A DNA stretch of 64,000 nucleotides from an uncultured Sphingomonas sp. Lineage in GTDB: Bacteria; Pseudomonadota; Alphaproteobacteria; Sphingomonadales; Sphingomonadaceae. The translations under genes and the position numbers were made by a program. Below the pieces are notes generated by a model. That model worked only from the letters and a program-made list of their open reading frames with translations, did no database searches and had not been told where the DNA came from. The stretch's first letter is position 1, and the number at the start of each line of letters is the position of its first letter. This document shows positions 52,270-53,651 of this stretch, piece after piece. The DNA is taken from positions 1 through 64,000 of the forward strand of contig CAJYLQ010000010.1 in the NCBI GenBank assembly GCA_913775975.1. The letters run 5' to 3'.

Positions 52270-53256
52270 TCACAGCGGGGTCGCCGCGACCCAGCGGTCC
52301 AGCGCGGCGCCATGCGGCCGGATGAAATGCTCCTGCGCATAGCGGCCCTGCTCGACGGCCAGCCGGCTGCGCTCCTCGCGGTCGTAGACGATGCGCGTCA
52401 GCGAATAATCCTGCGCGGTCAGGCTGGGGCGATAGCATTCCGTCGCGACGGAATTGGCGTTGTAGATTTCGGGGCGATAGATCTTCTGGAAGCTTTCCAT
52501 CGTGGCGATCGTGCTCGCCAGTTCCAGATGCGAGTAATCGCCCACCAGATCGCCGATATGATAGAAGGCAAGCGGCGCGGCGCCGTGCGGCGGCAGGAAA
52601 TAGCGCACCGTCATCCCCATCTTCGCGAAATAGCGATCGGTCGGCGACGCGGCATCTTGGCGGTATTCGATGCCCAGCACCGGATGGACATTGGCCGTCC
52701 GATGATAGACCTCGCGGCTCGACACGCTCAGGCAGATGACCGGCGGCTTGGCGAAGGCCGCGCGATAGGCCGGCGACGCCAGGAACTGGCGGAACAGATG
52801 CCCGTGCAGGTCGCCGAACCGCGCCGGCGCCTCGCCCACGCCGCCCCGCTGCCGGTGTTCGGGCAGCACGACGCTGAAATCATAATCGCGGACGTAGGAG
52901 GAGAAGTTGTTGCCGACCATCCCGTCGACCGCCACGCCGCTGCGCCGGTCGGTGACGACGGTGTGCAGCATCTCGATCAGCGGAAAGGGCGCGTCGCCCG
53001 CCTCCCCGCCGATCCGCAACGCGGCGGAGATGATGGTCAGCGCCAGCGCATAGCGGTCGCCCGTCGGATTGTCGCAATGCATCAGCGCGTTGAACCGCCG
53101 GTCGATCATCACCAGCGTGTTGCGCAGATTGTCCCGCCGCCGCTCGCCCCGCGCCAGATTGGCGAAGTTGGTGGTGATGCGCGTCGCGTCGGCCGGGCGA
53201 TACTCCTCGTCGAAGGGGATGCGGTCGATCGTGTAGGTGAAGCCGCTGCTCGTCAT
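52270..53256 (-). CDS. mesX: DUF1852 protein (MesX-like partner of MesD)
   Basis: YTIDRIPFDEEYRPADATRITTNFANLARGERRRDNLRNTLVMIDRRFNALMHCDNP; DUF1852 family, upstream of core-MetE in one operon. Confidence 0.85.
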   Translation of the reverse strand: MTSSGFTYTIDRIPFDEEYRPADATRITTNFANLARGERRRDNLRNTLVMIDRRFNALMHCDNPTGDRYALALTIISAALRIGGEAGDAPFPLIEMLHTVVTDRRSGVAVDGMVGNNFSSYVRDYDFSVVLPEHRQRGGVGEAPARFGDLHGHLFRQFLASPAYRAAFAKPPVICLSVSSREVYHRTANVHPVLGIEYRQDAASPTDRYFAKMGMTVRYFLPPHGAAPLAFYHIGDLVGDYSHLELASTIATMESFQKIYRPEIYNANSVATECYRPSLTAQDYSLTRIVYDREERSRLAVEQGRYAQEHFIRPHGAALDRWVAATPL

Positions 53257-53392
53257 GATACACCTGCTGTTGCGAACAGGGGCCATGGAAGAGCGCGCCA
53301 GCCGGGGACGGACCCCGCGCGCCATGCGCCGGGACCCTTCGCGTCGAGCGCGATCCACCGGAGGAACCCCCGTCCGAGGAACGTTATCGCGT

Positions 53393-53585
53393 CGAAGGCA
53401 GGTCTCCTGGCTCACGGGTCGCTGCGGTGGCTCCGGCCTTCCCGGGTGCCTTGCGGGCGCCCAGTGACACGAAATGGAGCCGCCGCTCGCCGCTTACAGT
53501 TGCGGGGGCAGCGCCGGATTCCGCCCCGAAGGACGCCACCGGCTTCCCGTCTTAGCCCCGTCGCCACGCCTGGGACGGGGAACCT
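53393..53585 (-). ncRNA. Cobalamin riboswitch in the 5' leader of the mesX-mesD-like operon
   Basis: Minus strand contains GGGAAGCCGGTG, GGAATCCGGCGCTGCCCCCGCAACTGTAAGCGG, GTCACTGGG, GGGAAGGCCGGAG and the B12 box GAGCCAGGAGACCTGCC in correct order. Confidence 0.95.
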
Positions 53586-53596
53586 CGACGGTCGCG

Positions 53597-53625
53597 ATAG
53601 AGCATAGCGGCCGGGATGCTGTCAA
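53597..53625 (-). promoter_or_regulatory. Predicted promoter of the riboswitch-mesX-mesD transcript
   Basis: Minus strand TTGACA (53625-53620), 17-bp spacer, weak -10 CTCTAT (53602-53597). Confidence 0.45.
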
Positions 53626-53629
53626 TCCT

Positions 53630-53651
53630 GATATAAAGATATGTTTATATC
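53630..53651. promoter_or_regulatory. AT-rich inverted repeat in the divergent intergenic region
   Basis: GATATAAA-gatatg-TTTATATC, perfect 8-bp arms in a GC-rich background. Confidence 0.65.

What the first reader, a model, noticed from the sequence alone, without database searches (positions are those of the whole stretch)
53256..53651. Cobalamin riboswitch controlling a MesX/MesD-type B12-independent, folate-independent methionine synthase operon
Seen directly: a near-complete cobalamin aptamer on the minus strand with every conserved block in order, about 140 nt upstream of a DUF1852 gene followed by a core-MetE-like gene with HxC/E/C zinc ligands. Established knowledge: DUF1852 (MesX) with core-MetE (MesD) is described as a folate-independent, oxygen-dependent methionine synthase system of unresolved methyl donor. 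Inference: the cell uses MesXD only when B12 is scarce, and uses B12-dependent MetH otherwise.
Basis: partly seen in the sequence, partly recalled or inferred. Interest (0 to 1): 0.85.

Follow-up and report, generated by a model that had tools for sequence, protein, structure and literature searches.

The report
B12 riboswitch on mesXD operon
A Sphingomonas-type bacterium keeps its backup, vitamin-B12-independent methionine-making enzymes (MesX and MesD) behind a B12-sensing RNA switch and, just upstream, a DNA site that probably binds a methionine-cycle repressor, so the backup is probably made only when the B12-dependent enzyme cannot cope; the parts are known, but this combination appears not to have been described.

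Summary
Rfam scores a complete cobalamin aptamer on the minus strand (53601–53380, RF00174, 99.4 bits, E 1.2e-23), 123 nt before the ATG of a MesX gene (PF08908) that is followed 26 nt later by a MesD-type core methionine synthase. The link is not chance. All 58 of 58 mesX genes found in 296 genomes of the genus carry this riboswitch in the same place and orientation, and so do five mesX loci of other alphaproteobacteria, while 0 of 52 mesX loci from other proteobacterial classes do. The genome also has metF and a split, B12-dependent metH, no full-length metE, no cobN, and only one other cobalamin riboswitch, before a BtuB-like receptor gene. A 20-bp palindrome (53631–53650), the probable operator of the SAH-sensing repressor SahR, lies 5 bp upstream of the −35 box, occurs in 58 of 58 loci, and also precedes the genome's own sahR-like–metF–metH operon. 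So mesXD probably has two inputs: methyl-cycle demand at the promoter (SahR) and B12 in the leader (riboswitch). Ligand binding, the switching mechanism and repression in vivo remain inferred. I found no paper in the held library describing this.

The parts
53631..53650 (.). 20-bp palindrome ATATAAACATATCTTTATAT (minus strand), probable SahR (ArsR-family, SAH-responsive) operator
   Evidence: 1 mismatch to the genus consensus, 0 expected in shuffles; 58/58 genus mesX loci; same palindrome before the genome's own sahR-like-metF-metH operon
53620..53625 (-). TTGACA, probable -35 element, 5 bp downstream of the palindrome
   Evidence: sequence; TTGACR follows the palindrome at 5 bp in 56 of 58 genus loci. 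The consensus scanner found no full sigma-70 match; the -10 (about 53602-53597) is not canonical
53380..53601 (-). Cobalamin riboswitch aptamer (RF00174)
   Evidence: 99.4 bits, E 1.2e-23, full model
53504..53508 (-). L5 loop CCCCC (GCUGCCCCCGC), 5' half of the expected kissing loop
   Evidence: motif in 58/58 genus leaders
53359..53376 (-). P13 hairpin (CGGA/UCCG) with L13 loop GGGGG complementary to L5
   Evidence: CGGACGGGG in 58/58 genus leaders; P13 read by hand keeps pairing through other sequences in related leaders (CCGG/CCGG, CGGG/CCCG); the automatic count on a MAFFT alignment was inconclusive
53290..53356 (-). Expression-platform long-range helix: GGAUCGCGC (53356-53348) with GCGCGCUCU (53298-53290), enclosing a variable linker
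   Evidence: 5' strand invariant in 58/58; 3' strand varies, 51/58 keep all 8 pairs
53261..53265 (-). Probable Shine-Dalgarno AGGUG before mesX
   Evidence: sequence; conserved CAGGUGAGUCAUG-type motif in genus leaders
52270..53256 (-). mesX (PF08908/DUF1852, 328 aa)
51212..52243 (-). mesD (core methionine synthase without the MetE N-terminal domain, 343 aa)
   Evidence: same-strand neighbour of mesX in 58/58 genus loci

Best explanation
This is a two-input regulatory leader for the mesX-mesD operon. Transcription starts just downstream of a TTGACA promoter element that sits beside a probable SahR operator, so the operon is transcribed when S-adenosylhomocysteine is high and SahR lets go (inferred from homology and shared operator). 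The transcript begins with a cobalamin aptamer. When a cobamide binds, the L5-L13 kissing loop and P13 form and the expression platform shuts off mesX, probably at translation because no intrinsic terminator was found (inferred). When B12 is short, the leader stays open, MesX and MesD are made, and methionine is formed without B12 and without 5-methyl-THF. When B12 is available, MetF and the split MetH do the job and the oxygen-dependent bypass is off. Shown here: the aptamer, the two genes, their conserved linkage, the palindrome and its second occurrence before sahR-metF-metH, and the metabolic inventory. Not shown: ligand binding, repression in vivo, and the exact expression-platform switch.
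For: Aptamer. MesX/MesD. Conservation: riboswitch upstream of mesX in 58/58 genus loci with B12-box-to-ATG spacing of 137-150 nt in 56 of 58, 168 and 172 in the other two; also in Ochrobactrum, Neorhizobium, Devosia and two other alphaproteobacterial loci, L013 and L107. SahR-like palindrome in 58/58 and in the Ochrobactrum, Neorhizobium and Devosia loci, in none of the other 118 loci of the tally outside the genus, and before the sahR-like-metF-metH operon. Genome: metF, metH in two parts, no other PF01717 protein, no CobN, other riboswitch before a BtuB-like TonB receptor. Literature: mesXD needed without B12 in Sphingomonas koreensis (PMC7857596); DUF1852 mRNA falls about 300-fold with methylcobalamin in A. 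baumannii (PMC12892962); metE2 listed as a SahR target in one or two groups (PMC4239095).
Against: No binding or expression experiment exists for this leader. The genome is a draft, 83.6% complete, so metE, cobN or a MetR ortholog could be missing from the assembly rather than the cell. The local hairpin over the Shine-Dalgarno is no more stable than dinucleotide shuffles (mean z 0.02), so translational control is not demonstrated. SahR is assigned from the ArsR-plus-methyltransferase architecture and the shared palindrome, not from a tested operator; the published alphaproteobacterial motif logo is in a supplement I could not read. In Acinetobacter B12 lowers mesX expression without a riboswitch, so such a response does not require one.
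Confidence: 0.86

Rival explanations
1. The aptamer is real and binds cobamides but acts as an ON switch or has little effect; mesXD is chiefly controlled by SahR.
For: The expression platform could not be resolved, and a novel activating corrinoid riboswitch has been reported (title of PMC10653944, listed).
Against: The aptamer is on the mesX strand, with near-constant spacing to the mesX ATG in 58/58 loci. A B12-activated B12-bypass would make no metabolic sense beside MetH, and the studied metE riboswitch represses (PMC9600662).
Confidence: 0.06
2. B12 acts on mesXD only indirectly: B12-loaded MetH lowers homocysteine or SAH and the transcription factor (SahR here, MetR elsewhere) does the work; the riboswitch is vestigial or weak.
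For: A. baumannii shows strong B12 repression of DUF1852 (PMC12892962); Acinetobacter mesX loci lack the riboswitch and several have a MetR-box-like palindrome. A SahR-like operator is present here.
Against: Full-length, high-scoring aptamers are kept in 58/58 loci with invariant L5 and L13 motifs, which a vestige would not do.
Confidence: 0.07
3. The palindrome is not a SahR site but an operator of another regulator or a promoter feature of the divergent gene.
For: No binding data. The divergent neighbour in this window is an unrelated Trp-halogenase-family gene at 53736.
Against: The same 20-bp palindrome occurs before the genome's sahR-like-metF-metH operon, and sahR, metF and metH are core SahR targets in PMC4239095. 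It persists in loci whose divergent neighbours differ.
Confidence: 0.15

Closest known systems
Cobalamin riboswitch repressing the B12-independent isozyme metE (e.g. Priestia megaterium, Mycobacterium tuberculosis)
   Same: Same aptamer family and same logic: shut off the B12-independent methionine synthase when the B12-dependent one can work (PMC9600662; PMC11260477, abstract)
   Different: The controlled enzyme is MesX/MesD, not the folate-using MetE; Gram-negative leader; no SAM riboswitch alongside
Tandem SAM + cobalamin riboswitch before metE
   Same: Two inputs, methyl-cycle status and B12, on one methionine synthase leader (PMC9600662)
   Different: The methyl-cycle input here is probably a DNA-binding protein (SahR) at the promoter; Rfam finds no SAM riboswitch in the window
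MesD/MesX folate-independent methionine synthase (Price 2021, PMC7857596)
   Same: Both proteins belong to these families; the studied Sphingomonas koreensis also has split metH and no metE
   Different: That paper's main text does not mention riboswitches; here the control region is described
MetR- and SahR-controlled PF08908-metE2 (Leyn 2014, PMC4239095)
   Same: Known transcription-factor control of the same genes in other proteobacteria; metE2 listed as a genome-specific SahR target
   Different: No cobalamin riboswitch is mentioned for these genes in the passages read; the riboswitches it analysed are SAM and SAH types

Membership tests
Cobalamin riboswitch (RF00174) | Covariance-model score above the curated threshold over the full model | tested here: met
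   99.4 vs 31.5 bits, model 1-189/189
Cobalamin riboswitch (RF00174) | L5-L13 kissing loop with P13 in the expression platform | tested here: inconclusive
   Complementary CCCCC/GGGGG in 58/58 leaders and P13 pairing kept through different sequences by hand register, but the automatic count was inconclusive and no probing was done
Cobalamin riboswitch (RF00174) | Binds a cobamide and changes gene expression | not testable with these tools
   needs in-line probing or reporter assays
MesX (PF08908) | Full-length match to the family above cut-off | tested here: met
   526 bits vs 25, profile 3-323 of 323
MesD core methionine synthase | MetE catalytic domain without the N-terminal folate domain, adjacent to mesX | tested here: met
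   343 aa, PF01717 over residues 6-331, PRK09121 651.7 bits, next to mesX
MesD core methionine synthase | Zinc ligands His-x-Cys, Glu, Cys | tested here: met
   alignment with 3rpd: HICYGYG, ISLEC, TNCGM all conserved
MesD core methionine synthase | Needs MesX and oxygen, not MetF or cobalamin | not testable with these tools
   shown for S. koreensis proteins in PMC7857596, not for these
SahR regulon member | 20-bp palindrome shared with the sahR-metF-metH promoter of the same genome | tested here: met
   same palindrome before an ArsR-HTH + methyltransferase gene followed by metF and metH
SahR regulon member | Bound by SahR and released by SAH | not testable with these tools
   needs EMSA or a sahR mutant
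Full-length MetE | About 750-aa protein with two related barrels | tested here: not met
   the only PF01717 protein found in the genome is the 343-aa MesD
Tandem SAM-cobalamin riboswitch leader | SAM riboswitch next to the cobalamin riboswitch | tested here: not met
   only RF00174 in the window

The most novel reading that the evidence does not exclude
In alphaproteobacteria mesXD is governed by a conserved hybrid cassette: a SahR operator at the promoter plus a cobalamin riboswitch in the leader. It would be a protein-plus-RNA equivalent of the tandem SAM/B12 riboswitch gate on metE. It would belong to a wider B12-scarcity regulon that in Rhizobium and Agrobacterium uses the riboswitch on the neighbouring metR-like activator gene instead, and that also takes in a double-hotdog acyl-CoA thioesterase.
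Probability: 0.65. Interest if true: 0.62.

Novelty: new variant of a known kind. Interest (0 to 1): 0.5.

Why it matters
MesX is a protein of unknown chemistry; Price 2021 left the methyl donor of MesD open. A B12-repressed leader gives a clean condition (aerobic, no B12, high SAH) under which MesX must be working, so its substrate can be sought by comparing B12-plus and B12-minus cells. It also shows one gene pair placed under B12-related control in at least two ways in related bacteria: a riboswitch directly on mesX, or a riboswitch on a neighbouring metR-like gene. In beta- and gammaproteobacteria the pair often lies near a metR-like gene without any riboswitch. It helps explain how B12-dependent soil and plant bacteria tolerate loss of B12 or of MetH activity; MesD users resist nitrous oxide, which inactivates MetH (PMC13059711).

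Tried and rejected
(1) Local Shine-Dalgarno hairpin as proof of translational control: many leaders fold this way, but the stability equals dinucleotide shuffles, so it was not used as evidence. (2) Antisequestor idea, CGGACGGGGG of P13/L13 pairing with the CCUGYCCG strand before the SD: best partner in only 28 of 58 leaders, with competing sites in the linker; left as a hypothesis. (3) Intrinsic terminator in the leader: none. (4) Automatic covariation count for P13 on a nine-sequence MAFFT alignment: inconclusive because of loop-length gaps. (5) MetR control in this genome: best LysR hit is only 26% identical and there is no exact MetR box in 58 genus leaders. (6) A MesX partner flavin reductase: the Rhizobium one (PF01613) has no match in this genome, but the tool warned that an empty answer proves nothing without a positive control. 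(7) Solved relatives of MesX: none by sequence and none by fold.

Full report
1. The observation. Rfam's cobalamin model matches the minus strand at 53601–53380 with 99.4 bits over its whole length; it is the only Rfam family above threshold in the 64 kb window. The next gene on that strand starts 123 nt further on at ATG 53256 and is MesX (PF08908, 526 bits). It ends at 52270, and after 26 nt a 343-aa MesD-type core methionine synthase runs from 52243 to 51212. Its closest solved relative is 3rpd, and the HxC, E and C zinc ligands are conserved in the alignment.

2. Is it more than chance? I looked for MesX in every held genome of the genus: 58 of 296 have it. Rfam finds a full-length cobalamin riboswitch upstream of mesX, same strand, in all 58. 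The distance from the B12 box to the mesX start is 137–150 nt in 56 and 168 and 172 nt in the other two. Genomes of the order typically have only one or two such riboswitches, so this linkage is selected. mesD follows mesX on the same strand in 58 of 58.

3. Outside the genus. Five other alphaproteobacterial mesX loci have the riboswitch directly before mesX: Ochrobactrum L121, Neorhizobium L170, Devosia L114, and L013 and L107, whose organisms are not named. In five Rhizobium/Agrobacterium-type loci (L109, L110, L123, L126, L138) a cobalamin riboswitch lies between mesX and a divergent gene set and points at that set: a LysR gene, about 52% identical to the LysR gene near mesX in many beta- and gammaproteobacteria and called metR-like here, preceded in L109 and L126 by a double-hotdog thioesterase. 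In L110 the thioesterase frame is degenerate, and L123 and L138 have none. Three alphaproteobacterial loci have neither arrangement (L005, L117, L148). None of 52 loci of other classes has the riboswitch (19, 10, 20, 3). Many of those carry the LysR gene, and a MetR-type palindrome TGAA-N5-TTCA lies within 500 nt upstream of mesX in 29 of 80 named loci against 0.6 expected. Published work already puts PF08908-metE2 in MetR regulons of several groups (PMC4239095).

4. In the genus leaders a 20-bp palindrome, consensus ATATAAAGATATCTTTATAT, stands upstream of the aptamer in 58 of 58, with TTGACA or TTGACG following at 5 bp in 56. In the window it is at 53631–53650 with one mismatch, and none is expected by chance. 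It also precedes mesX in the Ochrobactrum (3 mismatches), Neorhizobium and Devosia (1 mismatch each) loci, and none of the other 118 loci in that tally has it; L013 and L107 also lack it. The same palindrome lies in this genome before an operon of an ArsR-HTH plus methyltransferase protein, metF and the two halves of metH (metH halves). SahR is the SAH-responsive ArsR-family regulator whose core targets include sahR itself, metF, metH, ahcY and metK; it binds a 20-bp palindrome, and metE2 was listed as a target in one or two groups (PMC4239095). That SahR is a repressor that leaves DNA when SAH rises is from my memory of the Desulfovibrio work; PMC8877191 calls it a predicted repressor whose binding depends on SAH. 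So I infer that mesXD is in the SahR regulon here.

5. Metabolic inventory. The genome (draft, 58 contigs, 2.79 Mb, 83.6% complete) has two cobalamin riboswitches: this one and one before a TonB receptor gene that looks like btuB. It has metF and a split metH, no second PF01717 protein, hence no metE found, and no CobN. S. koreensis has the same set, mesD, mesX and split metH without metE or cobamide synthesis, and there mesD and mesX are important in B12-free medium unless methionine is added (PMC7857596).

6. How it probably works. Promoter with TTGACA at 53625–53620 beside the palindrome; transcript start close to the aptamer (inferred; the scanner found no canonical sigma-70 site). The leader after the aptamer is very conserved for about 50 nt: P13 CGGA/UCCG with loop GGGGG, complementary to L5 CCCCC (58/58), then a helix GGAUCGCGC with GCGCGCUCU around a variable linker (all 8 pairs in 51 of 58). 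Related leaders keep P13 with other sequences (CCGG/CCGG, CGGG/CCCG), read by hand. No terminator was found, so control of translation or Rho access is likeliest. My test of the SD hairpin failed to exceed shuffles, so the last step is open. Direction: off with B12, by analogy with metE riboswitches (PMC9600662). In A. baumannii the DUF1852 gene drops 2^8.3-fold with methylcobalamin (PMC12892962), but probably through some other route, because the Acinetobacter loci scanned have no riboswitch.

7. Known or new? Cobalamin riboswitches on B12-independent isozymes are an established kind, as are MesXD and SahR. In the held open-access library no paper contains both DUF1852 and riboswitch, and the main text of the MesD paper never mentions riboswitches. 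Regulon tables in supplements (PMC3766115, PMC4239095) and RegPrecise could not be read and may list this link, so 'new' is provisional. What I consider new is the combination and its taxonomic pattern. I rate it a new variant of a known kind.

8. Side result on MesX. A model from 26 sequences is fairly confident (mean pLDDT 84.6, pTM 0.87), yet no solved structure resembles it (best E 0.07, TM-scores at most 0.2 in the listed matches), and sequence search finds none. MesX may be a fold not yet in the PDB; this does not tell its chemistry.

Noticed in passing
L052:798-997, L058:785-985, L066:785-985, L069:2226-2425, L077:724-922: Five Sphingomonas mesX loci have a second, divergent cobalamin riboswitch in front of a double-hotdog acyl-CoA thioesterase gene (two PF03061 stretches). 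Two more (L063, L067) have that gene downstream of mesD. Why a B12 switch would control a thioesterase is unknown; relief of stalled methylmalonyl-CoA metabolism is one guess.
   Followed up: partly
L109:2494-2702, L126:2518-2708, L110:2466-2675, L123:2573-2786, L138:2571-2784: In Rhizobium/Agrobacterium-type genomes a cobalamin riboswitch precedes a metR-like LysR gene (directly, or after the thioesterase) divergent from mesXD, suggesting B12 control of the activator rather than of mesX. No exact MetR box was found before mesX there.
   Followed up: partly
L123:1192-1413: A further cobalamin riboswitch (118 bits) downstream of the metR-like gene, target not identified.
   Followed up: no
window 52270-53256: The predicted MesX structure (pLDDT 84.6, pTM 0.87) matches no solved structure: possibly an unseen fold.
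   Followed up: partly
L113: A contig labelled Bacillus subtilis SK6B4 carries mesX and a flavin reductase with the same tblastn identity (83.9%) to the Rhizobium tropici one as Pseudochrobactrum L117: probably a mislabelled or contaminated assembly.
   Followed up: no
window 47675-49207, 53736-55247, 55196-55921, 58282-60840: Two tryptophan-halogenase-family genes, a DUF6445 gene and a TonB-dependent receptor surround the operon; the divergent halogenase start is about 85 bp from the palindrome.
   Followed up: no
window 56156-58219: 687-aa protein on the minus strand with no Pfam or NCBIfam match.
   Followed up: no
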